Assembly: GCA_011109175.1 (NCBI GenBank)
Contig: RDEW01000019.1
Location: forward strand, 923,978 to 951,716
Direction of reading: 5' to 3'
Source: Dicyema japonicum
Taxonomy: Eukaryota; Dicyemida; Rhombozoa; Dicyemidae
Length of the DNA stretch: 27,739 bases
Translations under genes and position numbers: made by a program
Shown: positions 772 to 27,739 of the stretch, one piece after another
Layout of the letters: the number at the start of each line of letters is the position of its first letter
Position numbering within the stretch: position 1 is the first letter of the stretch
The notes under the pieces: generated by a model
What the model was told of the DNA's origin: nothing
The model's input: the letters and a program-made list of their open reading frames with translations, nothing else
Database searches by the model: none

Positions 772-1080
772 TCAGAACAGGTCACCGATGAGTTTAACAA
801 ACTCTAAATATTCTCCCTTAATAAGACCATCAAAATCCAGGGAGTTATCACTATCCGTGTCGTAGGTTTTTATCAGTTCTAAGCACCTCTGTTTGGTCAC
901 CGAATTCCCAAACTTTTTCTTCAACATTGTGTGCAGTTCTCCGGGAGAAATCAACCCGTTCTTGTTGGTGTCAATTAAATCAAACACATCCCTCAATCCT
1001 GTGGTAACCACAATTCTTACTTTTCCTCTTCTCATCCGAAATGTTAGATTTCTATAAACACCAAATTGTCTTACATTCAT
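772..1080 (-). CDS. Small two-EF-hand calcium-binding protein
   Basis: The unspliced frame is open for 102 codons, but the protein only looks right after removing three tiny introns: 1052-1074 (23 nt), 999-1020 (22 nt) and 804-827 (24 nt). All are GT-AG. The spliced product is 79 aa, starting MNKSNISDEKRKRLRDVFDL, like the N-terminus of calmodulin-type proteins. It has two canonical 12-residue loops, DTNKNGLISPGE and DTDSDNSLDFDE. The last intron restores the loop-ending Glu (LDFDEFVKLIGDLF), which the unspliced frame lacks, and this is strong evidence for the splice. The loops keep Asp at positions 1 and Glu at 12, so Ca2+ binding is likely. It has half the length of calmodulin, with a single EF pair. 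The cellular partner is unknown. Confidence 0.85.
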   Translation of the reverse strand: MNVRQFGVYRNLTFRMRRGKVRIVVTTGLRDVFDLIDTNKNGLISPGELHTMLKKKFGNSVTKQRCLELIKTYDTDSDNSLDFDGLIKGEYLEFVKLIGDLF

Positions 1081-1188
1081 TATTATATCGAAATTTTAAA
1101 ACATTAATTTCAATAATTTATTAAAAAACAAAATTAAGAAATTTTAATATTATTAAATAGCAAATAAAAAAATAATTCTGCAGTTAGT

Positions 1189-1693
1189 TCTTTCAAAAAA
1201 TATCATTTATTTAAAAGAAACAGTCAACCGAGGATCATACAGTAGTCGCATGACTGTATGACTATTCCCTCTCAGGATGGCGAGATTCTCTCAAATAGCT
1301 AGGAGTGCTCCAGGAAATCTCCTGTGAGTGTAGAAATCCGATTCCCTAGATCAGTGTTTCTCAACCTTTTTCTATATCCCCTATGAAAAACTTTTCTCTC
1401 CTGTCAATAATTTATCGTCCCCCCTCCCTCATAANGTTTTCATTTGGTCTTTCAAAAAATATCATTTATTTAAAAGAAACAGTCAATCGAGGATCATACA
1501 GTAGTCGCATGACTGTATGGCTATTCCCTCTCAGGATGGCGAGATTCTCTCAAATAGCTAGGAGTGCTCCTGGAAATCTCCTGTGAGTGTAGAAATCCGA
1601 TTCACTAGACCAGTGTTTCTCAATATTTTTTATATCCCCCAATGAAAAACTTTTCTCTCCTGTCAATAATTTATCGTCCCCCCTCCCTCATAA
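1189..1693. repeat. Direct repeat across N at 1435 (assembly-type duplication)
   Basis: Bases 1189-1434 and 1448-1693 are near-identical (period about 259 bp, a few substitutions), with a single N at 1435 between them. This is the pattern of unmerged overlapping contig ends. The repeated unit holds copy B of the LG-x-RI ... LFERIS domain (minus strand; 1200-1346 and its duplicate at 1460-1604, both with in-frame stops) and a hAT-like terminal sequence. Confidence 0.8.
1352..1371 (+). mobile_element. Possible hAT-type terminal inverted repeat
   Basis: CAGTGTTTCTCAACCTTTTT closely matches the common hAT (Charlie-like) terminus CAGNGGTTCTCAACC. It starts right at the edge of a coding-relic repeat, as expected for an insertion. 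It appears again at 1611 in the duplicated copy. No matching inverted terminus was found in the window, so the element is incomplete or the match is chance. Confidence 0.35.
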
Positions 1694-1924
1694 TAAATAT
1701 AGAAAAAAACCGAGTTTTAAAACACAATTAAATCAACTGGATTACTTTTATTGTTTTGCTACGTAATCAATTATTTTTTTATAAAATTAAATCAATACTA
1801 CTACTCGCAAATGAATCAATATTACCTTTCTCCTCTTAAAAATTTCGCCGCGTGGCGCTATGTGATGCTGCGTGGCTAATTGGTAAAAGTTTTCTGTCTG
1901 TTGGTCTGTTCATTCTGTCTCTTC

Positions 1925-2170
1925 CTATTAGAGTGGCGTCATGTGATCCACCTGTCTAGGTGGCGCCCAGTGCCTGGCTGGCACCAAAAGAATCATTTGT
2001 TATCTTCCACTCCACTGGAGAGGTATCCACAACTGCAAGTATGGACGTCTTTTTCCTCTTACGTTGATTCCAGATGGACTCTGTTTCTGTAGAAGTAAAA
2101 ACTGGATTCACTTAATTAGTTGTTTACTTTAACTTCTTTCTCGGTGTATCCGGGGTTAATAAATTAAATT
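1925..2170 (+). mobile_element. Relic of a repeated element (R-x-RP-x-PG-x-H family)
   Basis: This stretch is homologous to the minus strand of about 15240-15540. Both share GGCGTCAT, then GATCCACCT, then CGCCCA-TGCCTGGC-GGCA, and both translate to a similar segment (SRWRPVPGWH here, HRRRPMPGRH there). The 3' part, with TTAATTAGTTG and then GGTTAATAAA, is shared with 11750-11830. It is most likely the decayed 3' coding end and tail of a retroelement. No intact ORF remains. Confidence 0.45.
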
Positions 2171-2172
2171 AA

Positions 2173-2426
2173 TTAAATTAATTCTCCTCTTAGAAGTGGA
2201 GCCGTTGACTTGAAACCCATCCGTTTCCTCCTCACTGGGTTGTCTGGCACGTCATCGAACTGATTTGCTAATTCCATCAGGTTGTTGTAACCAAATCTTC
2301 CTTGATAGTACGCACTCCATATATATACTCCACCAACATTCTCTTAAATGTTTTCTTTAGGAAAACGGATTGAATGTATGTTCTAGTTGGTGCATCGCTA
2401 ATGTTGTAATTAATCAATAATTTTTA
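2173..2426 (-). CDS. Candidate 3' coding exon, unidentified
   Basis: On the minus strand a frame stays open for about 84 codons to a TAA at 2173-2175. It reads through SDAPTRTYIQSVFLKK and MELANQFDDVPDNP, with balanced composition unlike random AT-rich translation. No start codon fits at its upstream end. Just upstream, an ATG at about 2553 opens MGKKHNNLSIFKRVDIRFAL in another frame. I could not find a consistent short-intron model joining the two. It may be a 3' exon of a spliced gene or part of a mobile-element ORF. Confidence 0.35.
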
Positions 2427-2694
2427 TTAAAAGACCCTTGACTTTGGTGAAGCTTTACCAGATGCTCTATATCTGGGATTCTTTTAGTAAGAGCAAATCT
2501 AATATCTACTCTTTTGAAAATACTCAAATTATTGTGCTTCTTCCCCATGGTTATAGTTACAATTGTTCTCCTGTTCAATACAATATTTATTGAAAAGACG
2601 ATCGCATTGGCTATTTAGTTTATTTTAATAAATTATTAGTATTACAAAAAAAAATTTTTTTGTCAATTTTTGATGATTTTAAAAGTAACAATTA

Positions 2695-3062
2695 ACGACA
2701 TATCGTCTCTTGGTAGAATTGTTACTGAATGGAATAGTTTTTAGTAATTCGGAAGATGAAGGTTATTTATACGAAAACCAGTATTGGCGACAATTTCTGC
2801 AAGACTATACGAATAAAAAATCCTGAATATTTTGCAGATATTTATTAATGAAGTTATTTATTATTATTATTTTGTTTTAGGTTTTTAATTCAATATCATT
2901 TCTTAGTGATGGAAAAAACTAAATTTTGTAAAAAACACTTCTTGGATACTACAAAGGATCTACTTAACATTAAGCCACCTCTATACGCAATATATTCTAC
3001 CGATAATCAACAACTGCTGTGCGGCATGAGGCAAATACCTGTCCTATACGAACCTAAATAAA
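2695..3062 (+). CDS. Candidate coding exons, unidentified
   Basis: Two plus-strand open pieces look protein-like. The first (2695-2825) reads SEDEGYLYENQYWRQFLQDY and ends at a stop. The second ends at TAA near 3062 and reads VMEKTKFCKKHFLDTTKDLL, then QIPVLYEPK. It is preceded by a 28-nt GT-AG interval ending in TTTTAG near 2880, in the size range of introns here, which would give a start MKFLIQYHF. The pieces could not be joined into one model and no family is recognised. Confidence 0.25.
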
Positions 3063-3343
3063 AACAACTTCTTCCAAGAAACAGTCACGAGGGTTCTACA
3101 AAGGATCTACTCTTTGCCACTAATCCCAACTCCATTATAGAAACTTGAAATCTTCAAAATTCCGAAAAATGTCTCATTCATACAGGAAGTGAGTCTGCTC
3201 CCGGGAGGAACACCGAGAAAGGATGAGACGGGAGCTTAAGGAGGCTGGGATCATCTGACGGCCACCCATTCCCTTTTATTTTGTAGGGTGATTTTCGTTT
3301 TAAATAAATAAATCCAAAGACCACGGTAAAATCAAACTAATTA

Positions 3344-3558
3344 TCACGTGTTCCCGATGCATTCCAACAGTGACTTCATCTTTCCCCGGTGTTCTTTCTT
3401 CGTGTCCCGCATGATCTTACAGAATGACTGAGTCCTTTTTGCATTTTCTTGATCTTCCTCATATTTGTCCAAGATATGGACGGTCCAATGAGGCTCATGC
3501 AAATGAGAAACAAGGCTCGATATACTGTCCTACATGTTCGTGAGAACCAATCTTCCAT
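3344..3558 (-). CDS. Unknown 63-aa spliced protein
   Basis: Exon 1 is only 11 nt (3548-3558, ATG plus three and a bit codons). A 23-nt GT-AG intron (3525-3547) follows, then exon 2 down to a TGA at 3344-3346. The spliced product starts MEDCISSLVSHLHEPHW and continues with a highly charged helical stretch (ILDKYEEDQENAKR ... KKEHRGKMKSLLECIGNT). There are three cysteines, no signal peptide and no membrane segment. I do not recognise the family. Support comes from the intron, typical for this genome, and from an exon 2 frame that is open over its whole length with coding-like composition. The unspliced frame gives a different 60-aa product that I consider false. Confidence 0.55.
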
Positions 3559-3621
3559 ATTCTTGATAAACTTTTTAGTACGTTTAGTTTATTTTGAATT
3601 TCACAAGAAAATTTTCTTCCT

Positions 3622-3830
3622 GCGGTGATAGACAATAACTCATTAATGCATTTAACTTTTAAACAAAAATTGGTCTTTATTGCGATCTGGTTTTCAAATT
3701 TAAAAAAAATAAAAAATTATATTTTNGCGGTGATAGACAATAACTCATTAATGCATTTAACTTTTAAACAAAAATTGGTCTTTATTGCGATCTGGTTTTC
3801 AAATTTAAAAAAAATAAAAAATTATATTTT
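3622..3830. repeat. Direct repeat across N at 3726 (assembly-type duplication)
   Basis: Bases 3622-3725 and 3727-3830 are essentially identical (period 105 bp) with one N between them. The repeat lies just upstream of the 63-aa gene. It is best read as an unmerged contig overlap. Confidence 0.85.
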
Positions 3831-4050
3831 TATGGAAAAACTAATAATGGGAACCAGAATGTTTTCTGGGACTCATACACAAGCAGAAAATAAAAAAACG
3901 ACAAGTCAATAACATTGTCGACGTCTCGGATTAATTAGCATAACTGTTCTTCTTAAATTAAGTGTAACTTCTACTTAAGCCAAGGTTTAATAACGGAGAC
4001 ATTACATACACCTGTTAAAAATACCTTAGCATGTAGCTAATACATTAAAC

Positions 4051-4356
4051 ATGGATCGTTTAAATAAAATAATAGGATATCCAATTACAGTAGATGTCAT
4101 TTTAATATACAATAGCATCCAAATAAACGCTCGAAACTATAAGCATGGGATGAAGGTATACGATGAAGAGTACGCCTCTGCTACCTCCCAACTTGTGGAA
4201 CTGGCATGCTGTGAGGACAGCCCACTGGACTCTAATGGAGATATTTTGACTGAATCTGATGTGGAGATGGGAACTAACAGGGAGTTTATGGCACACTCTT
4301 CTTTTAAGAGAAGAAGAGGGATTACCAACAAGGTGGATCAAAATCCGCTTAATTAG
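4051..4356 (+). CDS. Hypothetical protein, not recognised
   Basis: Open frame of 101 codons starting MDRLNKIIGYPIT and ending in a basic tail (SSFKRRRGITNKV). The middle is acidic (EDSPLDSNGDILTESDVEMG), which looks like real coding sequence. The first third is AT-rich and contains a possible 26-nt GT-AG interval at about 4091-4116, but removing it creates a stop. A 54-nt removal would keep the frame. The true structure is therefore uncertain. The KRRR tail could be a nuclear localisation signal. Confidence 0.35.
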   Translation: MDRLNKIIGYPITVDVILIYNSIQINARNYKHGMKVYDEEYASATSQLVELACCEDSPLDSNGDILTESDVEMGTNREFMAHSSFKRRRGITNKVDQNPLN

Positions 4357-4359
4357 TTA

Positions 4360-5750
4360 ATTTACTTGTTATAAACAAATATAAAATTCATTTTTATAGT
4401 TTAAAATATACATAAAAACATTTTGGAAGAACACTATTTTGAAAATGTTTTTATTAGAGATGTAAGTAATAATTTGCGATAATTGACAGAGCCATTCCCG
4501 GTCTAGGGAATCTGATTTCTACAAGCACATGAAATCTGTGCCTGCTATTTGAGCGAATATCACTATCTTGAGAGATCTTTTTTGGTCTTCTCAGCCTTTT
4601 CCTGGCGTATAGCATATCTACCAAGCTTACGACGATGTTGGAAGGACGAAGGGAGTCAATTGTCGTGAGATCCTATACCAATTTTAACACTGCATCGGCA
4701 CTTGTAAGTCTAGCAAATTTCCAATCCAAGTCTGATGGAGATACCCGCTGAAAGTATATCCCAACATTTCCGACCGGGAGGAAATTGATGAAAGTGTCAT
4801 TGACCAGGCGGCCGAGTCGGTGTTGGTTTGATTGATTTGATCGATAAGAAACCTCTCATATATATGGAACTGTAAGGGTCCCTACTCAGGCAGCCTAACA
4901 TAAAGATGCTCCATATTTCTATCTCTGATTTTATTGGGAGGTAATTGATGAGCTTAAACATGATGAGACCAAGCGCGTAAGACGTCTCAATGGAGATCGG
5001 CTAGAAAACGAGTCGATCCAGAATTCTAAGGTATTTTTATTTTTTTAATCTAAAAATATTATTAATTGATTTTTATTTCTAAATATAAAATTATCACTAA
5101 AAATATAAAACGCAGGTTGAAAAATACTTCTTTAAATGAATATTTCTCAAACAGTAACCATTTACTTACAAGCACTGCATCTCTATCGGTTTATCGTCTC
5201 AGTAATATCCTTCTGAATGTTCACTTACAGAATCCTTGTTACAACTTTTACTTCCTTTTACTTCCTCTGACGTCTAATCGCCCCCACAAAGGGCCAAGAT
5301 CCAACAATCACAACAATTATTCATCTGTAGTAGTGACGGACTGTATGTATAGAGAGCAGGGATGTAATCATTGCAGGCTAATGACCTGTGTTTAGGAATT
5401 CCTTGTGAACGAGGTCGGTAAGCAATACACAGAGTAATGCAGTGCCTTTAATGCTTCTGTTTAAGCATTTAGCGTTTGGGTGTCGTTGTGGTTTACTGAG
5501 TAGATTAACCTGTGTGGATGTCACTTAGCTGTATACCATAAATTGTAGTTTGGGTACGAGATAGGATGGTACTAATGTTAAACGTTTTCTGAAATAGTTA
5601 TAAAGCAAATAACGTGCGTGTAGCTACACACGTATATTAGCGTGCGTTTTGCATCCAAGCATATTTTCGTATAGCGTTTTTTGGGTAACGGGGCAAACTG
5701 ACTGCTAGTGTTTAATAAATCGGTTATTAAAATTTTAACTTTGTTTGTGA
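4360..5750. other. Gene-poor stretch with repeat relics
   Basis: It holds copy C of the LFERIS domain (4493-4575, plus strand, with stops). Bases 4979-5005 resemble part of 22345-22370 (shared AGACGTCTCAA, then GAGATCGG). A 109-codon open frame at 5066-5395 has no similarity I recognise and a composition like chance. At 5618 a 12-bp palindrome GTGTAGCTACAC occurs. No convincing host gene was seen. Confidence 0.4.
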
Positions 5751-5752
5751 AT

Positions 5753-6050
5753 ACATATTCGACGGTAATTATTTATTTTCTTTTAGTATGTCTCATTTAG
5801 ATCAACAAACCAAATACAGTAAACCCTCACTAATCCGAACTTTAATAATCCAAAAACTTCAATAATCCGAATTTTTTGATGAGTCAGAAAATTTTACCAA
5901 GACATATTCGACGGTAATTATTTATTTTCTTTTAGTATGTCTCATTTAGATCAACAAACCAAATACAATAAACCCTCACTAATCCGAACTTTAATAATCC
6001 AAAAATTTCAATAATCCGAATTTTTTGATGAGGCAGAAAATTTTACAAAG
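5753..6050. repeat. Tandem duplication (149 bp) over a transposon end
   Basis: The segment starting at 5753 is repeated from 5902 with few differences and no N between copies. The unit covers flanking DNA plus the 5' terminal repeat of the pogo element. The first copy has CAGTAAACCC, the second CAATAAACCC. It could be a real tandem duplication or an assembly artefact like those at the N sites. Confidence 0.75.
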
Positions 6051-6339
6051 TTTCCTTATAAATAGGCTTCAATAAACCGAAATTTCATAATCCGCAATCC
6101 TAAAGACATTCATTACAATTATCAAATTAATTTATTTTGTTTTTATTCTAAATGTAAATGAATTTAAAATCTCACAGTACCACATGGTTAGAGCTTAGTG
6201 GGGTAGCCGGGTGGCGTAATTATTCCTAATTCTTCGAGAAAAGAATTATCCAATATCTGTGAAATAAAAATTGAACTTTATTTGAGAATTTCGATACTCA
6301 AAAATTCGTAAAAACAGTGAAACACTAGAAAACTGTGAA

Positions 6340-7260
6340 TTTGATAATTCGCTTGTTGAATGGATTTCAAGGATGGATGCAATCAAACGTGTTATAACTG
6401 AAGATATTATTTCAAAAGCTAAGGTATTTGGTGAAAAGGTTGAATCAATGATCTGGAATTTAGTAAAGGCTACACAGAGCCAAAGAAAGATTTAATCTTA
6501 AACTAAAAGTTCTTCACGGAGAAACCAAAAAGCTTAAAACAAGATGAAATTAATTTGAATATGATGAGTTAAAAAAAGTTGATCATGATGTATTGCTAAA
6601 CATGGATGAAATTGGAGTCTTTTCTTCAATCTTTCCCTTCTATAACAATTTCATAGAAAAATAATAGGCATAAAGCAATCAAATATGAGAATCACTATAG
6701 CTACAGCAACTGGAACATTAAAAACTAAACCTTCTGTTATTTGGCAAGTCAGACCAAGATGTTTAAAAGATTTGACTTAGAAAATTATTTACTATGCAAA
6801 TAAAAGGGTTTGCATGGCAAGAAAACTTTTTATTAAAAAAGAAACGGTTATATAGCGGCTGCCCTGACTGCGTTGCTATTCCCTCTTAGAATGGAGAGCG
6901 AGATTCGCTCAAATAACCAGCAGCGCTCACAAGGGTCTCCTGTTCGTGTAGCGATCCGATTCCCTAGACGACTCAAGAATTCCAGCGTCGCAGGCGCAAA
7001 GGAACCATACGTCTCAACGGCGAGTGGAACAAACAAAAATCCTTGGGTAGGACCGCGTACTTTTCCCGTTTCATCTTCTTGTCCTTCTCAGCGGCAGAAC
7101 AGGTTCCATTCTTTAATATGAATTAAAATATTAAGGAAAAAAGTTCTTTTTAACGACATTTTTTGAAATTTAAAATTTTACTCATTCCAAAAAACAAAAC
7201 TACTCATCTTCAACCAATGAATTCAGGCATAATCAAGAACTTTAATCATTATTGTGAAAA
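6340..7260 (+). pseudogene. Broken pogo/Tigger transposase
   Basis: Remnants appear in the correct order but in different frames and with stops. The DNA-binding part (LVEWISRMDAIKRVITED, then IISKAKVFGEK; about 6350-6495) matches the CENP-B/Tc5-type helix-turn-helix of Tigger proteins. NMDEIGVF (about 6600) corresponds to the first DDE aspartate region. QSNMRITIATATGTLKTKPS (6676-6735) matches the conserved block after it. HLQPMNSGIIKNFNHY (about 7210-7250) matches the third catalytic block, where active relatives have QPMDQG, so the catalytic Asp is replaced by Asn. Frameshifts, stops and an insertion make it non-functional. Confidence 0.75.
6845..7050 (-). pseudogene. Mobile-element ORF tail, copy D (best preserved)
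   Basis: The minus frame reads VPLAVETYGSFAPATLEFL, then SRLGNRIATRTGD, WLFERISLSILRGNSNAV and RAAA with no stop over about 65 codons. It is the best preserved of the six copies here and is inserted inside the pogo element. I read it as the C-terminal part of a retroelement ORF (inference from recurrence and from memory of similar tails in invertebrate reverse-transcriptase proteins). Nothing upstream is preserved. Confidence 0.5.
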
Positions 7261-8095: not shown

Positions 8096-8125
8096 ATTAA
8101 TCAATTAATCCTTAAATCTAGAGCA

Positions 8126-8801: not shown

Positions 8802-11151
8802 TTAAGTTTCTCGACGAACAGCACGTGGGACAAAGTCAATCATAGTCTTCTGCCTCATGAAAGACTTTTTCCGATTTACCAGAGGAAAGTCTTCCTTTGA
8901 AGTTTTCGCTGGGGGATTTGAAAAAGCAGCGGTGAGAACACATCCACCAGCATCCAAGCCGTCAAGGACAGTCAATGCCACTTGGCTCGCAGATTCGTCA
9001 ACAAAGTCCACATAGGCGACCCGCTTAGACTTCCCACTTTTCCTCGTGACGAGTCTCACGTCCTTTACGCCAGTGATTCCGTTTCTTTTCAAGAACTCCC
9101 CCAAACCGACAGAATCCATTTCCTGTGGCAAATTGCGAACAAACAACTTGGTCTTTTCCAAATCAGTGTTATATTGGAACCCCTGGGACCCATAACTCGA
9201 CACAAACATCGGCCTTGTCTCTACAAGAGAACGATCAAGCTTAAGAGCTTGAGTAGCATCCTCCTCAGTCTCAAACTCCACGTAGGCAAAACCTCTATGC
9301 TTTCCACGACTGTCATCTCCGACTATCCTCACGTCCCTTACAGATCCGACCTGATCAAATCTGTGTCTAATGTCCTCGGATTTTACGGAATACGACAGAT
9401 TGGACACAAAAACTGTACATAGATTCCGTTCTTTCTCACTTCGAATTCTTTTCGCAGGAGATTCGATCCCCGACTCAATCCGCAGTCGTTTTTTGTTTGA
9501 ATTTGTATTTTTTGAAAACTTTTCGGAAGAATTCGGCTTATTTGGATCATCCGTGACTTCCGTATCGTCGGTTTTACTGGAAGAAGTCACATTTTCACCA
9601 ATGTCTACCTTTTCCGCCAAATTCCGCGTTTTATTGAAATTTTTGTCATTTTTAGCGGATTTCTTATAAGACTGAGCTTTTCCGGCAAAATTCTGGACAT
9701 AGTTCCGATTTTTCTCTGTGATTATCCGCACAGCCATCCAATACGAGTTGTGGTCTCCATGAATCCGCTCGAATCCAATATATAAGTCAGCAATCATCTG
9801 AGTGTGGTCCCTCACGCAGGCTACTGCCCTCTTTAATACTCTCCGTTGACTGGTAATATCACCGTAACAACTTTCAAGGGTGTAATAGTCGTTCCAATAT
9901 CTGAACTTCTCCCGTAATTCCGTTGTAACGATCCATTCAAACACATTTCTTGACTTTTCAAAGTCGGTTTTGGCAACAAACTTTCCATAAAACAGGAGAA
10001 TCTCGCTCAGTGAAACTAAGTCGTCGGAGAAATCTCAAATAAAAGAAAAAATTACTCGTTTGGAAAAAATGGAGAGCGTAGTCACACATTTCGCAGACAG
10101 AGTCGTAATGCTCCGTAGAAAATCCATTTTCCACGTGTCGCATCTTGTAGAACATTATTGCCGCTAAATACAGTCCCTTGTAGTCCTTAGTACTCGTGAA
10201 TTTCACGGAAAAGGCTGCGTGGAAAACCTCTACAATAAAACTTTAGAATACCGGCAAAAATTGCAAGCAACCTTTCATCACACGTGTTTCTAGGCGAGTA
10301 CCTTATGAGTTGGATTCTGTAAACCCAGAAAGAAGAGTTGTCCGGAAACAGAAAATTTGCCCTCTCCACCACGGAATTCACCGATTTCAGGTAAGTTTCT
10401 GTTGAATCGTAGCGACTTAACTGATACTGAGAAAGTTGAGATACCAGAAGTTGAATGTACAAACTCCAGTGCGGCTCACTGTCAGGGAAGAGATCGAGAA
10501 TCCTCTCCAAAATATTTTGTCTCCGTTTTGTGGCAGAAACGTGGGTATTCGCAGACAAATATTCGTCAAATAGAGACAAAGACGGTTCCTTCTAAAAATA
10601 AATAAAAAAAGACGTTCAAATTATCCTCAAACGGTTGAAAAAGTCGAATAAGTCGTCTCGACTCAGCCAATTTTGGGATTGAGGACCTCCCAGACCACTC
10701 ACTGAACTCTTCCCAGACAGTCTCTAATTCCATGGTTGGAACACCAATTTCCTTAACGTAAAGTTCTGATAATCTTTCTTCATCAGGGACCTCTTGTGAC
10801 CGTTCGAATTGACGAGCTTTCTCCCAAAGACAATGGGAGAGACCCACGTGGTTGCCACAGTATTTTAAGGCTTCGTCGATAACCTGGATGACTTCATCCA
10901 CGTGGTTGCTTGTGACCATAACCAGGTCGACGTAAATGTTCCAAATGTTAAAGCCTAAATAAGAATATTGAAAACTGTTAAGACTTCGGGCAGCTCTGTC
11001 GAGAAGGGGGAAGAGGTATTCGATCTCGGGGGACTCCCTACTAAGTTCGTCGTCAATCCATTCGAGCCACAGTTCTAATATTTATTATGGGGTACCATTT
11101 GAAGGCGGAAAATTTTGGCTGAATTGTTCTCTGAGTCTTCGACGGTCAAGG
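8802..11151 (-). CDS. SART3: SART3-like U4/U6 snRNP recycling factor, 5' end missing
   Basis: SART3 (Prp24 counterpart) reanneals U4 and U6 snRNAs after splicing. Removing four GT-AG introns, 11075-11095 (21 nt), 10592-10613, 10230-10251 and 10034-10055 (22 nt each), yields 753 continuous residues. The first visible residues are LDRRRLREQFSQN, then NELWLEWIDDEL, matching the first HAT repeat of SART3. Further HAT repeats follow, for example YGKFVAKTDFEKSRNVFEW across the last intron. A charged linker with SPAKRIRSEK leads to two RRMs: RNP2 VFVSNL with RNP1 RGFAYVEF, and RNP2 LFVRNL with RNP1 RVAYVDF. The C-terminus has MIDFVPRAV, like the LSm-contacting tail. The 5' end stops at the N at 11152, where the sequence changes abruptly, so the start is missing. 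Human SART3 has 963 residues. Confidence 0.93.
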
Positions 11152-13751: not shown

Positions 13752-13957
13752 TATCCACTATCGAATAAAATCAAATGATTTAAATCTAACAACCCTGAAC
13801 AGAATTCTCTCAAGTGGTAATAAATAACCGTACACGAGTAAATGTGATCAATTCTAGTCTAGATTTTAAAATTTATAGGATTGATGAGATGACTTCTCAC
13901 TTAGTCTTGACAACCACGTACGAACAAAATTTAAAAATAATATTCAAAATCAAAAAA

Positions 13958-14028
13958 GGCTCCAGTGAGGATCGAACCCATGACCTTCTGTTTACGAGAC
14001 AGACGCTCTACCACTGAGCTATGAAGCC
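13958..14028 (-). tRNA. tRNA-Thr, anticodon CGT
   Basis: The minus strand folds into a full 71-nt cloverleaf. The acceptor stem is GGCTTCA with TGGAGCC (one G-U). The D arm is GCTC-AGTGGTA-GAGC. The anticodon stem TCTGT/ACAGA encloses the loop CTCGTAA, giving anticodon CGT (Thr, ACG codons). The variable loop is 5 nt, followed by the T arm ATGGG-TTCGATC-CTCAC with a mismatch in its outer pair and one G-U. A run of six T follows directly downstream, a polymerase III terminator. There is no intron and CCA is not encoded, as expected for a eukaryotic nuclear tRNA. Confidence 0.92.
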
Positions 14029-16000: not shown

Positions 16001-16339
16001 AAAAAATGACTTTCTGCAAATCATCCAATTTACATGTGGGTAGAGAGAAGTGTCTACTCGAAGACCAAGGTTTTCTCGAATGTCGAGTTCTTTTCGAAGT
16101 AATAAATTAAAAATAATATTATTGAAAATGAGAAGAGTTCTTTCCGAAGTAATCAATGAACCACTCAATNAAAAAATGACTTTCTGCAAATCATCCAATT
16201 TACACGTGGGTAGAGAGAAGTGTCTACTCGAAGACCAAGGTTTTCTCGAATATCGAGTTCTTTTCGAAGTAATAAATTAAAAATAATATTATTGAAAATG
16301 AGAAGAGTTCTTTCCGAAGTAATCAATGAACCATTCAAT
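16001..16339. repeat. Direct repeat across N at 16170 (assembly-type duplication)
   Basis: Bases 16001-16169 and 16171-16339 are near-identical (period 170 bp) around a single N. The unit includes the last codons and the 3' flank of the mS31 gene, so a second partial mS31 C-terminus appears at about 16119-16169. That copy should be ignored as a gene. Confidence 0.85.
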
Positions 16340-17065
16340 ATGTTCCTCTTTTTCAGCCAAAGACAGATGAGGATTGTGGGAGAGGGCATTTGTTAATAGA
16401 GAAATGAAATTCTTAGTCTCTGTCTTTTCTACTCTGCCAGCAAACCGTCTTCCAATGAAGATGTGATCTTTGAAATCACCGTCCTCTTCAACCATGTGCT
16501 CGTTGTCGATCGGAAACGGTCTCATCTTCCCCACGTGGATCATATCCATAATTTCATCCCAGTAATTGAAAAGACTTACCAGATGCGACTTATAGAGACT
16601 ATTCTGATACAGTTTGTCCCAGTACTCCACAAGATGGTCGTTGTTCTCAAATTCTCCATCCTGGAATTTCGAAATGGCAGAAAGATTATAATTAGTAAAC
16701 GAAGTGTCAGAGTTTTGATTAGACCCCTGAGACCACATATCACCTTTATTAAATTTGGGGTTTCTTGAACGCTGAGACTGATCTTTGTACGACTTAGATT
16801 CAACTGTCGCTTTTGGATAAAAACAACCCCCTACCTGATCTGAAGTTTGATTTCTGATTATTTAGGGTAAATTTATTATTGGATATAATTTTTCTATGAT
16901 GAGTTCCGAATTGACCAGATTTGGGATTATAACCTTCATTGAACATTACCTTCCCGTCACCTTTTCCGGGTATTTTATTATTGGATATCCATCTTACATT
17001 TACAGATCTCCTCATTGACCCTATGATTCAATTATTCTATTACCAAGAAATGTGTAAGTAAACAT
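16289..17065 (-). CDS. MRPS31: Mitochondrial small ribosomal subunit protein mS31
   Basis: mS31 is a metazoan-type component of the mitochondrial small ribosomal subunit. Two introns are inferred: 17021-17043 (23 nt) and 16810-16834 (25 nt; a 31-nt version ending six bases later also keeps frame). The product is 242 aa. The first exon gives MFTYTFLGSMRRSVNVRWIS, basic and hydroxylated like a mitochondrial presequence. The C-terminal domain carries the family signature: RPFPIDNEH, KDHIFIGRRF, then NALSHNPHLSLAEKEEHIEW and FIDYF, against human FPINNE, EHIFL and SKNPYLS ... EHIEWFRNYF. It is shorter than human mS31 (395 aa), mostly in the linker. Its 3' end lies within an N-associated duplication and its 5' end within a 115-bp tandem duplication. 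Confidence 0.9.
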
Positions 17066-18585: not shown

Positions 18586-19910
18586 ATGTCTTTCAGGAGA
18601 AATAATAAGACACAAACTGGATTTGAAGAGAAAGAAAACTTGCCTTTCTATGCACTGAATGAGTGGAATAAGGGAATATTTATCTCATCAAAGTCTATGC
18701 CAACATTCGAAGCAGTTCCTGAATTGAATGCCGAACAAATGAGTTTTGAAAATTCAGAATACCAATCAAACAATGTAATTCACAGCAACCGACACGGCAG
18801 ACTAAAATTAATAGAAAATACTGAATTAAACTTGAATAGGCTTTGTGAGTCATTTGTATGATTAAATAAAATTTTTAGGAAAGAAATGTCTATTTAACCA
18901 GAAAAATTAGCCAAAATGTTGACATGAGCGTTGATGTCTTGGCCCAGATACACAAAACGTCTGCGGGTAAATACGGTTGAATATGGATTAGATCATTCAA
19001 ATCCGAGTTTCTGCTGGTCGGGGATTTTTCCTGAATGTCAAATCGACTTGGAATCGTCATTGCTCTCCCAAAAAGTATTCGTCGGAGGGTTGCCTTCGAG
19101 GATCGACGATGGTGGTGAATTTTGCTAAATTTAGAGTCCCTAAAAGCAGTCTTTAACACTTTTGGGCAAATTAACATTTATTGGCCGAAAAGAAAGAGCA
19201 ATTATAAAGGTTTCAGCAATTTTAATTTCAGTTCCTGGTGGCTACGTGTACATCATTTTCGCCAAGCAAAATTCGCTGAAGAATTTATTGTCAATTTGCA
19301 AGAAGGACAACAATAATAATAATTTTTACTTCCAATTTGCGTACAAATTCAACGAGTCTGAGCTAAACGCTGAGGTGGGGAATTTTGGTCAGAAATAGGT
19401 TCAAATTATTCCATGGCTGCAAACTGACTTGTTTTACAAAAAGGATTTTGTGAAGGAAACACCGTTTTTGAAATCAGTGTTTGTCGGGGCACTCCATGGG
19501 ACGATAACTGCGAAAAGACTGTACCAAATAATGGACGATTTGTTTGGGTTTGTCGTTTCTGCTGAGATCGACAGTGACAGACACGCCTACCCCATTGGTT
19601 TGAGAGGTCTCTGTAACTTTAGGATCCGGAAAAGTGACATTTTCCAACAAATCCTGCTATTTGAAGGCCATAAAGGCTGAATTTGTGGAAGTTAGATGCG
19701 ATAAGTTTACTAAGAAGGTTTTTTGTTTGTATGAGAGAGTAGATTCAAATTGATCCCTATTTGGAGGAGACCCATTGTCAGAACTGTATTATTGAATCTG
19801 GGATCTATTTTTGCCGCAACTTGAACTGCTTAACGTATTACTGTGAAAAATGCTGGAATATAATTCATAAGAAGGTGACTGACAAGCATCTCCCAGTCAC
19901 TAGATTTTAA
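18586..19910 (+). CDS. CPEB1: CPEB1-type cytoplasmic polyadenylation element-binding protein
   Basis: CPEB proteins bind U-rich elements in 3' UTRs and control polyadenylation and translation of stored mRNAs. Seven GT-AG introns are removed: 18856-18878, 18967-18991, 19112-19134, 19210-19231, 19375-19398, 19598-19622 and 19718-19742 (23, 25, 23, 22, 24, 25, 25 nt). The result is one 385-aa frame. RRM1 starts [20 protein letters not shown] and includes [13 protein letters not shown] linker [11 protein letters not shown] leads to RRM2, with [31 protein letters not shown] and [12 protein letters not shown]. Then [17 protein letters not shown] opens the C-terminal zinc-binding domain (CQNC, FCRNLNC, YYCEKCW, then His). 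FVGALHG and [12 protein letters not shown] match CPEB1/Orb rather than CPEB2-4. The N-terminal region (about 135 aa) is short and charged and not recognisable; its start codon is the least certain part. Confidence 0.93.
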
Positions 19911-20017
19911 ATATTTCTTTGGTCTTACTGTTTTTGTCAATTTATTTATTGCTTTGTTAAGGGGGGTACTTTGGTTGATATCTTGATGAGGTCGTGAAAA
20001 GGCTTTTGGTGGTATGA

Positions 20018-21045: not shown

Positions 21046-21118
21046 CAAAGAATTATAAAGACAACAGCCAAAATCAGTTTAATACCCAATCTCAAGTAAT
21101 TAAGTTTCCCAGTAAAAT

Positions 21119-22160
21119 TCAGAAGGTGACCCCAGTAGCTACTTCGGCTGCTTCGATTACTTTCTGTTGCATAATTTTATCATAAGCATATTTTGATTTC
21201 TTCCCAAATTTGCAATTATCAAAATATTCCCCAGAAACTCCTTCCAGACTTGCATCCGCAGTGGCATACAACACAGTCTGGGCTCCATTTTCCACCGTCT
21301 ATTAGTCAATATTTTAACTCACCCCCCCAAAAAATTTCATGAAAATTTTAAAAATAAAACTTAGCGGAAATTTTTCATAAAAATTACTATAAATAGTTCC
21401 AGGATGCAGCGCATTAAAAGTGAGGCAACTATGCGGAATTTTATCAGCAATGTATTGACAGAAATATAACTGGCATAGTTTACTGTTGCCGTATGACTTG
21501 GTTATATCAAGAGATTTCCCCTTCAACAGCTCCTCGTTTATCCTCCCTGCCAACTGGTGTGTCCATGAACTAACGAAGACGACTCTACTCGGTTGACTTT
21601 CAATCAATTTATCTGAAATATATTCACGAAATTACTCAATAAAAGTTTAGTGAGGAGAAAAGGAGCAAAGTAGTTAACCTGCATCACAGTCTCGAATCCG
21701 TCTTTGGTTTCCTCGTAATTAAAGGCTAAAATAAACCACCAAACAACAGGCAAGCCCAGCGTTGTGTACGAGAGCATACAAATTGCTCTCCTCCTGGCAA
21801 AATTCATAAGAAAATTTCTTGACTGATTCAAAGGAAGCAAGGTCAAGTTCCATAACTTTAATATTTGAATTTCCCGTCTCATCTTCTATCCTATTGGCTG
21901 CCATTTGGGCATTAGTTACGTTTCTGCATGCCAATATCACACGTGATCCTCTGTGGGCTAATCCTTTCGAAATTTCATAGCCAATTCCTATAATATCACT
22001 ACTCCTATTACTTACCAGATGCTCCTCCAGTCACTATTATTGTCTTTCCGGACAAGTTTATGCGACTATCGTAGACTTTGGTCATTGTTTTCATATAAAA
22101 ACAATAAACGCAGTAAAAAATAAAAAAAATAACCAAAAAAATTATGAAACCAACAAGCAT
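21119..22160 (-). CDS. Membrane-anchored short-chain dehydrogenase (retinol dehydrogenase/WWOX-like)
   Basis: NAD(P)-dependent oxidoreductase of the classical SDR family. Four GT-AG introns are removed: 21988-22015 (28 nt), 21726-21747 (22), 21613-21635 (23) and 21299-21322 (24), giving 314 aa. The N-terminus MLVGFIIFLVIFFIFYC is a membrane anchor. LSGKTIIVTGGASGIGYE across intron 1 is the cofactor-binding TGxxxGIG motif, followed by RVILACRN and DLASFESV. HNAG is the variant NNAG motif, joined through intron 2 to LASFNYEETKDGFETVMQVN. VVFVSS supplies the catalytic Ser region and YGNSK the catalytic Tyr and Lys. FNALHPG and GEYFDNCKFGKKSK complete the fold. Substrate cannot be told from sequence; retinoid or steroid dehydrogenases and WWOX share these blocks. 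All four junctions restore conserved motifs. Confidence 0.92.
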
Positions 22161-22219
22161 TTATTAGCTACTTTTAAAATTTTATTAATAATTAATTTAT
22201 AATAATTAATGGCTTAGTT

Positions 22220-22445
22220 GTTGACAAGGTCTCAATTATGGCCTGCCGGCATTGAGCACGTAATGGGAGTTACTTCTCATGATCAGTTCTGCAAGACGTC
22301 CGATGACTCCTATAACATGATAAACTCATACATGGTCGGGCCAATAACTCCAGACGTCTCAACTGAGATCGGGTGGATACAGGGGCGTGCCAAACCTTTC
22401 TGCTGCCCGGGGAGAGTGTATGATAATGATGCCCCTTATAACTAA
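22220..22445 (-). pseudogene. Mobile-element ORF tail, copy F
   Basis: The minus strand includes PISVETSGVIGPTMYEF, matching VPLAVETYGSFAPATLEF of copy D (6845-7050), followed by stops and ESSDVL. The plus-strand open frame over the same bases (75 codons) is therefore most likely a shadow. The relic lies just upstream of the dehydrogenase start. Confidence 0.4.
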
Positions 22446-22764
22446 ATTAATCGTGACTAAATAAATTGTGTTGTCATACATGAGAATAAATAAAAAATCG
22501 AGTAAGAGTGAAGTCCATAATTATTTAATTTATTAAACGATAAACAAAAAGTCACGTAGCTTCATGTCCTATCGGTCCTTTGATGTCAACAAAAGTCTGT
22601 ACCACAGCTTCTTTCAGAATTTCTTTCAACGCTGATCAAAGATAAACTTGACAGGCAATGATTTGACACGGAAACCTCAAATATGTTTGTATATATGAAT
22701 GTCTCATTTTGATCAATGTGTCTCATTTAGTAAGTAAGTTATTATAAAGAAAAAGCACTGTAAA
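22446..22764. other. Intergenic stretch downstream of the LINE
   Basis: AT-rich sequence beyond the 3' end of the Jockey-like LINE. Short repeated words (GTCTCATTT at about 22702 and 22718, also at 5790 and 26724) occur, without clear meaning. No gene seen. Confidence 0.4.
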
Positions 22765-25393
22765 TTAAGTGATGGGGGAAGTAATATGAAACGGTAGGGC
22801 ATGCCAACCGATTTCTACCTCGACAGTCTCCCAAAAAAAATCCGTAAACACAGGGTCATCTCTGAAGATATGTGCCAGATACTTTAGTGCGATTTTTGAA
22901 ACCTCGAATAAGATTTTCGATAGTTCAGCCAACCTTGCACATTTTTCCTTCCAACCATAGGGGAATTGGCATACGAGGAATATCCCGTAAGCAAGCTTTA
23001 GAGCAAAATTTCGCGTCTTCTCAAATTTCTTGAGGATAGAGTCTATCTTTTTCGAATCGTACATCCTTCTAAACCGTATAACATTTCAGGTAGTATCGCA
23101 GTGTTGAAGACATAACAAAAGTCTCCGGCTCGAGCTTTAATTTTCTAACGTAGTAAAGAGCGTTCGTAGCTTTTTTTCTTTCGTATTTTAGCATGTTCCA
23201 TAAAATTATCTCCCTCGTCAATTAGGAGGCCAAGGTATTTCATAGTCTTCTTCCGAGGTATGTCTTGTAACAAGCTCTTTAGGCTAGCCATCCACCTGCT
23301 TCCAGTTATCCTCAGCATACCAGATTTCTCATGTGCCACCGAAAGTAAGTTTTCATTGCACCACTCTTTAATCTGGTCCATGTACGTCTTCAATTGTTTC
23401 TCAGATACCAAAGGGTTTAAAGAAACATCATAAATTATGACGTCATCAGCGTATATCAAAATTTATGTATGTGGGTTTTCTGGGGAAGGCAATTCACTCA
23501 TTACAATGTTAAATAATAGAGGACTGAGCACTGAACCCTGAGGTACACCTCTTCTCAACCAAATTTCACGAGATTCATAGTTTAAAAAATTAAAGTCTAT
23601 CCGAGAGCAAACTTTGTATCCAAAAATAGAGTTTCTTTTCAATACCAAATTTCGCAAGACAAATAAAAAGACTAAGATGCCACACACTGTCGAAAGCTAT
23701 GGATGTATAATAGCAGACTACGGTCAAACACCCTTTAGTTTTAAAAGCCTTCACAATTGACGCGTTATTACTGTACAAACAATTTCCACAAGACCGATTT
23801 TTTTGAAAGCCCCACTGATGCTCTTTTAGTATATCACTACGTTCTATATTTTCAGAATGTCTGTTGAATACAATTCTTTCCATAACTCTTGAGATCGTTG
23901 GTATAAGGCTAATGGGCGTATAACTGGTTAAGTACCCAGGTTTCCCAGATTTACGTATCATCCTGACCTCCGTCAATTTCCAATGCGAAAGTATGTGACC
24001 CAACCTGATACTGCAAATATAGAGACATGTCAGATATTCATAGAGTACCTTGGGTGCTTCCTTGAATAAACGAATAGAGATCTTGTCCTTTCCAGGAGCA
24101 TTGTTTTTAGTGCATTTTACCGCATTTTCAACTTCTCCAGCATTTATAGGGCTGTGACGTAGAGACAAAGAACTAACTACTTTTTCCAACTTTTTTTAGA
24201 GAACTGAGGGCCAACGAAGACAGTCGCTCATGGTTAACTTGTTGTATTTTCGAGAGTTCATCCCCAAACATGTTAGGAATTTCTTCTAAAGATACAAGAG
24301 ACTCATCATGACATTGCAACAGTAAAATTTCTTTTCTGGATTACGTGCGGTTACTTTATTATAAATTTTTTAAAATTTTGGGTTTTTTCGATACAATTTC
24401 TGCACTGAGTTATCCAAAAATTATTCTTTTCAACTTTTTTCTAATCTGCGTATTTCTTGCATGATTATCATAATTTCTAGCTCTATGAGCCTACGGTCAT
24501 GGACGTAATTTGTTTTTCAAGCATTGTTTCCTTTTCAAAAAGACTATAACATTTTTTTGTGTCATTGGAGAATTCTTGTTAACCGAATAGACTTTATTCG
24601 CATATGTTTCGAGGTACGATTTAAAAAAAACAATTAGAGTCTCTCTAACTCTCAAGATCCAACTTGGAAAACTCCTGATTACAAAAATTCCCAAAACGTT
24701 CCAAATATATAGCAATCCTATTTCGGTAATGATCTCAGTTTATACTTGTCAGATCATAGCGTACTAGAGTAGGCTTAACCTCTAAAAGAGTTAGGTTGAG
24801 TTTATAAAAAATTGGTAGATGATCACTACCAATATCACCAAGCGTAATCGGTCGTTCCAAAAATTGATGAACAGATATTAACGCCATTCCCAAATAATTT
24901 CAGTCACTTAAAGAATAGTGATTCGGGGTCGAGGACATCACAACAGAAAACCCGGAAGACACAGACATATCTTTCAAAACAAGGCCGTCTCTATTCGTCC
25001 CCAGACAACCGAACGGTGCATTTTCATCATGAATAAAATCCTCAATAAGATAAGGATACGAAGATTATTTTTTAGAATAAATTTCTCAAATTTTCATCCA
25101 CATATTTTTCACTCGTACTTTTAGGGAAACAAACTCACACAATTCTTGGGATATGATCTTCAGGTTACGAACCCTTAGATTTAGTCTGTAGAACATAGAT
25201 GTACCCGTACCGAGCCAGACTTCCATTTAATATCAAGAGAACAATATCACTCAAGTTGAAAATTATCCTCACTCTTCGTTTCATTAACAATTAATATATC
25301 AACGGGATTGGTAGATAGCATATGCACAATCTCAGAACGCCTTCTCTTTAAGGATCGGGCGTTCACCGCAATAATAGTAAGAACAGACTTCAT
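22765..25393 (-). pseudogene. LINE ORF2: AP endonuclease plus reverse transcriptase (Jockey-like), broken
   Basis: ORF2 opens with ATG at 25393, overlapping the ORF1 stop by four bases (ATGA). The endonuclease part reads TIIAVNARSLKRRRSEIVHM, then DILIVNETKSED and a stop. Further on come NAPFGCLGTNRDGLVL and SDHLPIFYKL, the catalytic SDH of AP-type LINE endonucleases. The reverse transcriptase follows: NNAPGKDKISIRLFKEAP, SYTPISLIPTISRVMERI, AFDSVWH, RRGVPQGSVLSPLLFN, YADDVIIYDV (catalytic Asp pair) and KTMKYLGLLID. Several frame changes and stops lie between these blocks, so no functional protein can be made. AFDSVWH and GVPQGSVLSPLLF are typical of the Jockey superfamily. No RNase H domain is visible. 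Confidence 0.85.
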
Positions 25394-26729
25394 ACTTGTA
25401 GAACCTCTGCCTCTCCAAAAAAGAGGGCCAACATGTTCCTGACGTCAACTCCTTTTTCGGCATAAAAAGAAACCAGCTTGTCAACAGCATTTATCAATTC
25501 CAAGTCTGCAACCGGGCCTTCCACCAGATTAGGAGTACCGACAGCATTCCCTTTGCTCATGGTATTGGTAACAATGTTTGTATTCTCTGAGGTTCGGTTA
25601 GTATCCACGGTCGATATTTTCGCGTCTATTTGGGTCGAAAAATCACATTTTATTGAGTGTGTAGATTTTCCCCAAACACTTTCAACAGCCTCAGCTTTAA
25701 CCCACTTAACTGGTCGAAACACCTTCTTAGTCATGTCTTTCGTACCTCTTTCTTCAAAAGCAGCCTTTGCTTTAAGAACAACTACCATAACAAACCAAAT
25801 GACCAACTGTCCCACAGTTAATGCACTTCCTTTCACTGCCCTTCGCCAAACAAAAGTTCATATTATGATCTCTACAACAAATTAAACACTTTTCCTTTTC
25901 CTTGCAGAAATTCAGGACGTGCCCGATTTTTTGACATCGGTAGCACCTAGTTAACGGTTTTCTGTACTATTCAAAACGAACTCTCTGGAACCCAAATACC
26001 ATCCCCAGTCTTACAAGCAAAGTGGCTTCCGCTCTAGACTTCAAAGTTAATTTTCCAACAGGAAAACTGCGCCCGTCCATCATGAAACGTTGGAAAGAAA
26101 AACCAGGTCGTAGAGTTTCTGTAAAATAAAGATTCAAGTCATCATCTGAGACTCAAGAAGGGATTCCATTCATAACATCAGTGGAAGGATATAGAAAGGA
26201 AGTAGTAAAAGCATGTCCATCAATACCAAGTGGGGCTCTTAAGCCATAATCATCGACACAAGCGTATATATCCTCTTTTGAGGCAAATTCAAGCCTAAAT
26301 ATGCCTGATTCCTTTAATGTAATTCANAATAACATCAGTGGAAGGATATAGGAAGGAAGTAGTAAAAGCATGTCCATCAATACCAAGTGGGGCTCTTAAG
26401 CCAAAATCATCGACACATGCGTCCATATCCTCTTTTGAGGCAAATTAAAGCCTAAATATGCCTGATTCCCTTAATGTAATTCATGCCTTACTGGCAGTCG
26501 CTGAGTTTGATAGTATGTTAAAACGTTATATCAGTCCCAAAGCCATGTTTTTAATTTCCAGATTCACTACAAGATAATCATAAGCCAAGTTAGACGAAAC
26601 AGCTCGTCCTGATACAACAATGTCATGTAGTTCATCGGTGGGTATTTTAATCCCCTTCTTTGATTTAGATTTCACTGTCGATTTACCTTCATTTGCCAGT
26701 TTTCCTTCTTTGTCGTTGACGTGTCTCAT
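25390..26729 (-). pseudogene. LINE ORF1 (gag-like) with three zinc knuckles, broken
   Basis: The frame begins with ATG at 26729 (MRHVNDKEGKLANEG). It passes a DELHDIVVSGRAVSSNLAYD segment and, after stops, continues FTTSFLYPSTDVMNG and PGFSFQRFMMDGRSFPVGKL. Zinc knuckles follow at about 25945-25795: CYRCQKIGHVLNFC (C-x2-C-x4-H-x4-C), CLICCRDHNMNFC, and CINCGTVGHLVCYGSC. This triple knuckle is typical of Jockey/I-type gag proteins. Right after the third knuckle one extra base shifts the frame; the following KAKAAFEERGTKDMTKK is open to the ORF1 stop at 25390. Part of the region is duplicated around the N at 26327. Two more fragments of the same gag lie at 20018-21045. Confidence 0.8.
26172..26484. 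repeat. Direct repeat across N at 26327 (assembly-type duplication)
   Basis: Bases 26172-26326 and 26329-26484 repeat with a few substitutions (period 157 bp) around a single N. The unit is the gag FTTSFLYPSTDV region of the LINE, so gag appears partly doubled here. Confidence 0.8.
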
Positions 26730-27060
26730 TTGACCTTTAAATGTATTATTTTGATCGATCTGTATTTCATTTTAATCAGAAGTCTCTCATTTTTATAAAT
26801 GGGACTATTTTCTTGGTTATGCATTCTGATCTTTAATCTCCTTTTTATCAACCAATTATCTTCAACTTTTATGAAGTCATTGCTTGGTAAATCTAAAAGG
26901 TTTTTCGGTCAACCATCCATTATTTAGGGTTAACAACCTAATCAGACAACTTTCGGATTGTTCCAAGAAAAAATCTTTCAAAGATTTTCTACTAGAATGA
27001 TTCATTGACTTTCCAAGTTCTATGCCAAAAAGTTTTTCGGAATAACAATTGGAAGAGTCT

Positions 27061-27586
27061 GTAATGAAATAAATATTAAGTTTAACAAAATTTTGTTTTT
27101 TTATTTATTTCAGTGTGGTAAACCAAAAAACACAATAAAATGTTATCAATTATGCTAGAAATGAATCTATTACTTTTGGCATTCTTTGTTGTTTCAAGTT
27201 CGTATCAAATTGATGAAACGTCTACTGAAAACTTACAACTTCCTAGTTCCACTACTGGCACTGGATATAACGTAGATTACGAAATAAGGTGGTTCAAGAC
27301 AAATGTAAGGATTTAGAGTATTNCGAAATGAAATAAATATTAAGTTTAACAAAAATTTGTTTTTTTTATTTATTTCAGTGTGGTAAACCAAAAAACACAA
27401 TAAAATGTTATCAATTATGCTAGAAATGAATCTATTACTTTTGGCATTCTTTGTTGTTTCAAGTTCGTATCAAATTGATGAAACGTCGACTGAAAACTTA
27501 CAACTTCCAAGTTCCACTACTGGCACTGGATATAACTTAGATTACGAAATAAGGTGGTTCAAGACAAATGTAAGGATATAGAGTAT
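27061..27586. repeat. Direct repeat across N at 27323 duplicating exon 1 of the S28 peptidase
   Basis: Bases 27061-27322 and 27326-27586 are near-identical (period about 264 bp). Each copy holds the promoter-side pyrimidine tract ending TTTATTTCAG, the start codon (27140 and 27405), exon 1 and the first intron bases. The first copy stops at the N inside the intron. This is best explained by unmerged contig ends; there is one gene, not two. Confidence 0.85.
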
Positions 27587-27739
27587 TTTAGCTTGACCAC
27601 TTTAACTCCACAAATAGTTATAAATTTAATTTGAAATACATTTATTCTGATAAACACTACAAACCTGGTGGACCGGTATTTTTCTATACTGGAAATGAAG
27701 GAAGAATCGAAGATTTTTCTGAAAACATGGTTTTTATGC
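27405..27739 (+). CDS. Serine carboxypeptidase of family S28 (PRCP/DPP7-like), N-terminal part
   Basis: S28 peptidases are secreted or lysosomal enzymes that release residues next to proline. Exon 1 (27405-27569) encodes a signal peptide with core NLLLLAFFVVSSS, then a spacer and YEIRWFKTN. A 22-nt GT-AG intron (27570-27591) follows. Exon 2 continues LDHFNSTNSYKFNLKYIYSD, then KPGGPVFFYTGNEGRIEDF. LDHF and GGPVFFYTGNEG are the family hallmarks (human PRCP has VDHFGF and LFYTGNEGDI). The catalytic Ser, Asp and His lie beyond the window end. PRCP and DPP7 cannot be separated from this part. An identical start at 27140 is an assembly duplicate. A TTTATTTCAG acceptor-like site 17 nt before the ATG may be a 5'-UTR splice site. 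Confidence 0.9.

What the first reader, a model, noticed from the sequence alone, without database searches (positions are those of the whole stretch)
772..27591. Every rebuilt gene is split by spliceosomal introns of only 21-28 nt
I located 22 GT-AG introns in seven genes (EF-hand 3, the 63-aa gene 1, SART3 4, mS31 2, CPEB1 7, SDR 4, S28 peptidase 1). Lengths are 21 (1), 22 (7), 23 (6), 24 (3), 25 (4) and 28 (1), mean about 23 nt. In SART3, CPEB1, SDR, S28 and the EF-hand gene, removing them recreates known conserved motifs across the junction. Introns this short leave almost no room between 5' splice site, branch point and 3' splice site, so the splicing machinery must tolerate extreme crowding.
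Basis: partly seen in the sequence, partly recalled or inferred. Interest (0 to 1): 0.85.

Follow-up and report, generated by a model that had tools for sequence, protein, structure and literature searches.

The report
Animal genes with 22-nucleotide introns
This animal's genes really are interrupted by introns of only about 22 to 25 letters, a trait already described for the tiny octopus parasites called dicyemids, and the same genome also seems to keep a few introns of the rare second kind that are about twice as long.

Summary
A gene finder trained on this genome, plus homology, recovers 18 of the 22 claimed introns exactly (EF-hand 3, SART3 3, CPEB1 7, SDR 4, S28 1; 22-28 nt, mean 23.4). 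Four are unconfirmed. Homology alone shows the same elsewhere in the genome: 14 of 29 protein-kinase exon pairs exceed the profile by 22-26 nt, and 13 of 15 junctions tested carry GT...AG at exactly the implied length. In 49 sequences, 281 introns (only 15-80 nt searched) have median 23 nt; 272 are 20-28 nt.

This is published biology if, as genome size, GC and introns suggest, the animal is a dicyemid: reported introns of 25-27 nt, the weakest 5' splice sites known, no branch motif. I reproduce the weak sites (GTRAG in 10 of 272); the U1, U2 and U6 copies read keep canonical pairing sequences, with one U1 exception. New here: U12 and U6atac genes, and three U12-type AT-AC introns of 48, 52 and 58 nt in genes whose other introns are mostly 22-26 nt. 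I found no report of U12 introns in dicyemids.

The parts
772..1080 (-). EF-hand protein gene, 79 aa when spliced; introns 1052-1074 (23), 999-1020 (22), 804-827 (24)
   Evidence: splicing raises EF-hand_7 from 43.9 to 55.9 bits and EF-hand_1 stretches from 1 to 2
804..827 (-). intron 24 nt, EF-hand gene (the unspliced frame is also open)
999..1020 (-). intron 22 nt, EF-hand gene
1052..1074 (-). intron 23 nt, EF-hand gene
8802..10919 (-). SART3-like gene (HAT repeats plus two RRMs); the 5' end probably extends further
10034..10055 (-). intron 22 nt, SART3
10230..10251 (-). intron 22 nt, SART3
10592..10613 (-). intron 22 nt, SART3
16289..16738 (-). mS31 (MRP-S31) gene, 3' part; the two claimed introns were not confirmed
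18586..19910 (+). CPEB1 gene, 385 aa when spliced, 7 introns
   Evidence: CEBP_ZZ 1.1e-21, RRM_7 6.6e-20; aligns to CPEB1 in the PDB over residues 127-340 with three gaps of 1-2 residues
18856..18878 (+). intron 23 nt, CPEB1
18967..18991 (+). intron 25 nt, CPEB1
19112..19134 (+). intron 23 nt, CPEB1
19210..19231 (+). intron 22 nt, CPEB1 (2-residue alignment gap at this junction)
19375..19398 (+). intron 24 nt, CPEB1 (1-residue alignment gap beside this junction)
19598..19622 (+). intron 25 nt, CPEB1
19718..19742 (+). intron 25 nt, CPEB1
21119..22094 (-). short-chain dehydrogenase (retinol dehydrogenase-like) gene, 292 aa, 4 introns
   Evidence: adh_short 1.2e-27; 38-40% identity to the eight best relatives
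21299..21322 (-). intron 24 nt, SDR
21613..21635 (-). intron 23 nt, SDR
21726..21747 (-). intron 22 nt, SDR
21988..22015 (-). intron 28 nt, SDR
27570..27591 (+). intron 22 nt, S28 peptidase gene (gene runs off the window)
   Evidence: the first stretch of this gene is duplicated across the N at 27323

Best explanation
These are ordinary U2-type (major) spliceosomal introns, most likely of a dicyemid animal, shrunk close to a minimum of about 20 nt. Shown by sequence: GT...AG ends; lengths concentrated at 22-25 nt; almost no consensus inside the 5' splice site; excess A 7-8 nt before the 3' end; U1, U2 and U6 RNAs with unchanged pairing sequences in nearly all copies read; genes for U2AF65, SF1 and PRPF8. 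Inferred mechanism (I would give this part 0.5): an unmodified RNA core recognises AG|GT mostly through the exon side of U1 pairing, U2 pairs weakly around an A about 7-16 nt from the end, and the narrow distance window, more than motifs, selects which GT and AG are joined. In the same nucleus a minor spliceosome apparently still removes at least three U12-type AT-AC introns of about twice the length. The confidence below is for what the introns are.
For: Homology-only excess of 22-26 nt in 14 of 29 kinase exon pairs. GT-AG at the exact homology-fixed length in 13 of 15 junctions, against 1.7 on average for the 256 dinucleotide pairs and 9 for the next best. 281 introns, median 23 nt, 272 within 20-28. 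Splicing lifts U2AF65 from 82.6 bits (best exon) to 331.7, over its cut-off of 310.3. snRNAs. Information budget, rough: 56 GT-AG pairs of 12-80 nt per true intron (5.8 bits needed); length gives 3.3 bits, donor positions outside GT about 0.9 and acceptor positions outside AG about 1.1-1.5 (my sums of the columns). Branch-motif EM 85.8 against 28.5-41.9 on six shuffles. U12-type introns in three genes.
Against: No transcript data. Species identity is inferred; D. japonicum's published mean intron is 38.2 nt, against 24.1 in my census. The finder allows only 15-80 nt, so longer introns are invisible to it; of the 29 kinase pairs, 14 show an excess of 38-225 nt, some of them non-adjacent pieces or loops, not resolved. 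With a flat length prior 12-80, 116 of 156 introns are 20-28 nt and 40 are scattered. On the PRPF8 locus L047 the finder returned no PRPF8 model. A 'first AG beyond 20 nt' rule is not better than shuffles (263 of 272, null mean 256, maximum 265). With flat splice scores GT-AG leads only modestly in total score (83.7 against 79.8), though 15 GT-AG introns fall at 20-28 nt against at most 9 for the 30 other pairs tried. One U1 copy of 8 reads ACTTACTTG (L041). The strict U12 pattern is weakly enriched (9 against 4), a looser one not at all (37 against 58), and the consensus of the three U12-type introns is a condition of the search.
Confidence: 0.85

Rival explanations
1. The intervals are not introns but real coding insertions or frameshift errors in a draft assembly.
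For: The assembly has what look like unmerged overlaps around single Ns; the EF-hand frame is open without splicing.
Against: Recurrence at 22-26 nt with GT-AG ends on nine contigs; Pfam, NCBIfam and PDB matches run across junctions; splicing improves the EF-hand match by 12 bits.
Confidence: 0.02
2. Splicing of such introns depends on a specialised factor that replaces U2AF, as SPF45/RBM17 does for human short introns with truncated polypyrimidine tracts (PMC8363638, passages), rather than on length selection.
For: Little room for a polypyrimidine tract; SF1's ULM tryptophan is a phenylalanine here, which could loosen the SF1-U2AF65 contact (recalled role).
Against: U2AF65 is retained and passes its family cut-off.
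Confidence: 0.3
3. The animal is not a dicyemid but another lineage that reached ultra-short introns independently.
For: No sequence match to a named dicyemid was made; among the 120 of 171 SDR relatives listed the best is 39% identical and none exceeds 46%; D. japonicum's published mean intron is 38.2 nt.
Against: 64.67 Mb and window GC 0.368 against 67.5 Mb (GenomeScope estimate about 65) and 36.7% for D. japonicum; intron length and weak 5' splice sites fit dicyemids among animals.
Confidence: 0.07

Closest known systems
Dicyemid introns (Dicyema acuticephalum, Dicyema sp., D. japonicum)
   Same: U2-type GT-AG introns: mean 26.2 (16 introns) or median 25 (41 introns), median 27 in Dicyema sp.; 5' sites 0.5 bits; no branch signature (passages)
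   Different: Here the median is 23 and a weak branch signal is visible; D. japonicum's published genome mean is 38.2, perhaps because it includes longer introns that my finder cannot see
Stentor coeruleus introns (PMC9505925)
   Same: Tiny introns with canonical U1 and U2 pairing sequences (part 1 of section 4 and sections 9 and 10 read)
   Different: Ciliate; 15-16 nt; branch A at a nearly fixed place; no minor-spliceosome RNAs found there, whereas U12 and U6atac matches are present here
Paramecium tetraurelia and Bigelowiella natans nucleomorph introns
   Same: Very short, 5' sites largely GT(A), no branch signature (passages)
   Different: Protist and nucleomorph; lengths 20-35 and 18-21 nt
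U12-type (minor) introns
   Same: ATATCCTT start, TTCCTTAAC branch site, AT-AC ends
   Different: 48-58 nt, short for the class; Blastocystis has the shortest published average, just under 42 (passage)

Membership tests
U2-type spliceosomal introns | GT-AG ends at homology-fixed junctions | tested here: met
   13 of 15; all 18 confirmed window introns read GT...AG, which for 17 of them is also a condition of the finder
U2-type spliceosomal introns | Removal from RNA | not testable with these tools
   no RNA-seq held
U2-type spliceosomal introns | Major snRNAs present with canonical pairing regions | tested here: met
   U1 (best 69.0 bits, just below the gathering score 69.5; 5' end ACTTACCTG in 7 of 8 read), U2 (GTAGTA in 5 of 5 read), U6 (4 of 4); U4 and U5 not searched
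Dicyemid intron class | Length about 22-30 nt | tested here: met
   272 of 281 within 20-28 nt, among introns of 15-80 nt
Dicyemid intron class | Almost no consensus at +3 to +6 | tested here: met
   GTRAG 10 of 272, G at +5 57 of 272
Dicyemid intron class | Species is a dicyemid | tested here: inconclusive
   size and GC fit; no marker gene compared
Minor (U12) spliceosome | U12 and U6atac genes over the Rfam cut-off | tested here: met
   U12 85.4 bits against 53, U6atac 37.0 against 33; U11 and U4atac not searched
Minor (U12) spliceosome | U12-type introns in conserved genes | tested here: met
   3 of 9 pattern hits lie in conserved genes and join in frame; two align to a PDB relative without a gap at the junction, the PLC one with a 7-residue gap beside it

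The most novel reading that the evidence does not exclude
In one animal nucleus the two spliceosomes have gone opposite ways: the major one, with unchanged U1/U2/U6 pairing sequences, removes near-signal-free introns of 22-25 nt chosen mainly by length, while the minor one keeps a handful of U12-type AT-AC introns with strict signals that stop shrinking at about 50 nt. The lower length limit of an intron would then be a property of the spliceosome class, and an SF1 whose U2AF-binding tryptophan is replaced would be part of the major machine's change.
Probability: 0.4. Interest if true: 0.7.

Novelty: already known. Interest (0 to 1): 0.45.

Why it matters
The shortness itself has been in print for dicyemids since 2007 (PMC2222250). 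What could matter is the internal comparison: the same cells seem to hold two intron classes of very different length, and the snRNA pairing sequences are unchanged. That would make it testable whether length alone can define an intron in an animal, and what sets the minimum for each spliceosome.

Tried and rejected
First-AG ruler: not better than shuffles at 20 nt; only a mild avoidance of earlier AGs (203 of 272 against null mean 183, maximum 198, for a threshold of 12). Dinucleotide scan with a weak coding model: modest separation. Looser U12 pattern: no enrichment. The 150-aa model at 25390-25861 with a 22-nt 'intron' was rejected as a gene: no Pfam family over its cut-off, and it lies beside frames that I read as a LINE-like reverse transcriptase. 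The antisense model at 8857-9422 overlaps SART3 and dropped out when overlaps were resolved by coding score. The relaxed run (start penalty -4) gave further doubtful small models, some with introns, which I did not count. The 38-nt and 68-nt introns in the U2AF65 model and the 66-nt one in the GGPS1 model may be wrong. Six of nine U12-pattern hits were set aside by my reading: four lack A or G before TATCC (L074, L075, L076, L080), one (L073) reads as a reverse-transcriptase frame, one (L079) shows no clear coding frame. The genome-wide GTAAG pattern count was uninformative.
Full report
The window is bases 923,978-951,716 of contig C94 of an assembly of 64.67 Mb in 191 contigs. It holds animal genes (CPEB1, SART3-like, mS31, a retinol-dehydrogenase-like SDR, an EF-hand protein, an S28 peptidase) and mobile elements.

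Checking the introns. I wrote a gene finder with a three-phase coding model, started from the longest open frame of each of 30 kinase loci and a flat intron-length prior of 15-80 nt, then retrained on its own calls. The S28 intron (27570-27591) restores LDHF; the Pfam match starts one residue before the junction. That is 18 of 22. Pfam matches of the spliced models are strong, and for the EF-hand gene, whose unspliced frame is also open, splicing raises the pair score from 43.9 to 55.9 bits. CPEB1 aligns to a CPEB1 structure over residues 127-340, which by my count from the coordinates span five introns, with three gaps of 1-2 residues, two of them at or beside junctions. On reversed sequence the same model finds 2 genes and 1 intron; on the real sequence 74 genes and 283 introns.

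Evidence that does not use the gene finder. The Pkinase profile found 142 exon pieces in the genome. Of 29 ordered pairs of neighbouring pieces, 14, on nine contigs, show an excess of 22-26 nt over the profile, one 13 nt and 14 show 38-225 nt, several of these being non-adjacent pieces. At 15 junctions (13 kinase, two U2AF65) GT...AG at exactly the excess length is present in 13; the mean over 256 dinucleotide pairs is 1.7 and the next best pair has 9.

Census. In 49 sequences 63 of 74 gene models carry 281 introns: median 23, mean 24.1, 272 within 20-28 nt, 4.6 per kb of coding sequence. The finder cannot see introns over 80 nt, and with a flat length prior 116 of 156 introns fall within 20-28 nt. 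With the donor model off, positions +3 to +6 have 0.05-0.09 bits each and G at -1 is 50%. Of the 272, 10 have GTRAG and 57 have G at +5. Matches to the U1-complementary nonamer average 4.8 of 9, against 3.6 for 3,072 GTs in exons. A is enriched at -7 (54%) and -8 (47%), and a branch-like motif beats six shuffles.

Machinery. U2 has 25 matches, 22 over the cut-off; the five of eight fetched copies that were printed in sense keep GTAGTA. U1 (11 matches, best 69.0 bits, gathering score 69.5) keeps ACTTACCTG in 7 of 8 copies read; L041 differs. U6 keeps ACAGAGA in 4 of 4. A PRPF8 domain, U2AF65 and SF1 are present, though the finder gave no PRPF8 model. U2AF65 reaches 331.7 bits once spliced (cut-off 310.3), and SF1 has eight introns of 21-25 nt. 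The ULM tryptophan of the PDB's SF1 is a phenylalanine here, in mid-exon; its role as the U2AF65 contact is recalled.

Minor spliceosome. U12 (85.4 bits) and U6atac (37.0 bits, cut-off 33) each have one match. A strict U12-intron pattern has 9 hits against 4 for the reversed control. Three fall in conserved genes and join domains in frame: a PLC-gamma (AT-AC, 58 nt), a SMAP-type ArfGAP (48 nt) and GGPS1 (52 nt). The finder's preference is clear for GGPS1 (gain 9.8 against 5.4), a tie for the ArfGAP (48 nt 14.4, 57 nt 14.3) and small for PLC (3.5 against 0.4). With the 48-nt and 52-nt choices the PDB alignments run through the junction without a gap; PLC has a 7-residue gap. Other introns of these genes are 22-26 nt, apart from a doubtful 66-nt call in GGPS1. 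The pattern itself demanded the consensus and a gap of 2-30 nt, so strictness and upper length are conditions of the search; shorter ones were allowed and none of the three is shorter. The wider pattern is not enriched and gave no loci. For this reason I lowered the novel reading from 0.45 to 0.4.

What is known. D. acuticephalum: 16 introns, 26.2 +/- 1.9 nt (PMC2222250, passages); 41 introns, median 25, no branch signature and 5' sites of 0.5 bits, the weakest known (PMC2483917, passages); Dicyema sp. median 27 (PMC6543705, passages); D. japonicum 67.5 Mb, GC 36.7%, mean intron 38.2 (PMC6736024, passages). Ogino et al. 2010 was seen only as cited. Window GC is 0.368. I file the animal as a dicyemid by inference. 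For U12 introns in dicyemids I found nothing: the searches dicyem + U12 and minor spliceosome + mesozoa each returned only PMC2483917; dicyem does not occur in the main text of PMC10639083, which left out introns under 30 nt, or of PMC7367187 (passages). The library holds open-licence papers only.

Verdict.

Noticed in passing
window 1435, 3726, 14310, 16170, 26327, 27323 (also 11152, 20304): Single Ns; at the six tested, a direct repeat of 105-236 nt at 94-98% identity lies at or beside the N, which looks like contig ends joined without merging; this duplicates parts of mS31 and S28.
   Followed up: partly
L054 (SF1), exon 1248-1385: The SF1 ULM tryptophan is a phenylalanine (TTT), in mid-exon.
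   Followed up: partly
L077, L078, L081; L072 (U12), L082 (U6atac): Three U12-type AT-AC introns of 58, 48 and 52 nt and minor-spliceosome RNA genes in a genome of 22-nt major introns.
   Followed up: yes
window 13957-14028: tRNA-Thr (anticodon CGT) on the minus strand.
   Followed up: no
window 22765-25861: Frames that I read as LINE-like reverse transcriptase and a possible ORF1-like frame, minus strand (no family search made for the reverse transcriptase).
   Followed up: no
places: U2 snRNA has 25 matches (22 over the cut-off), including partial ones, six of them on contig C115.
   Followed up: no
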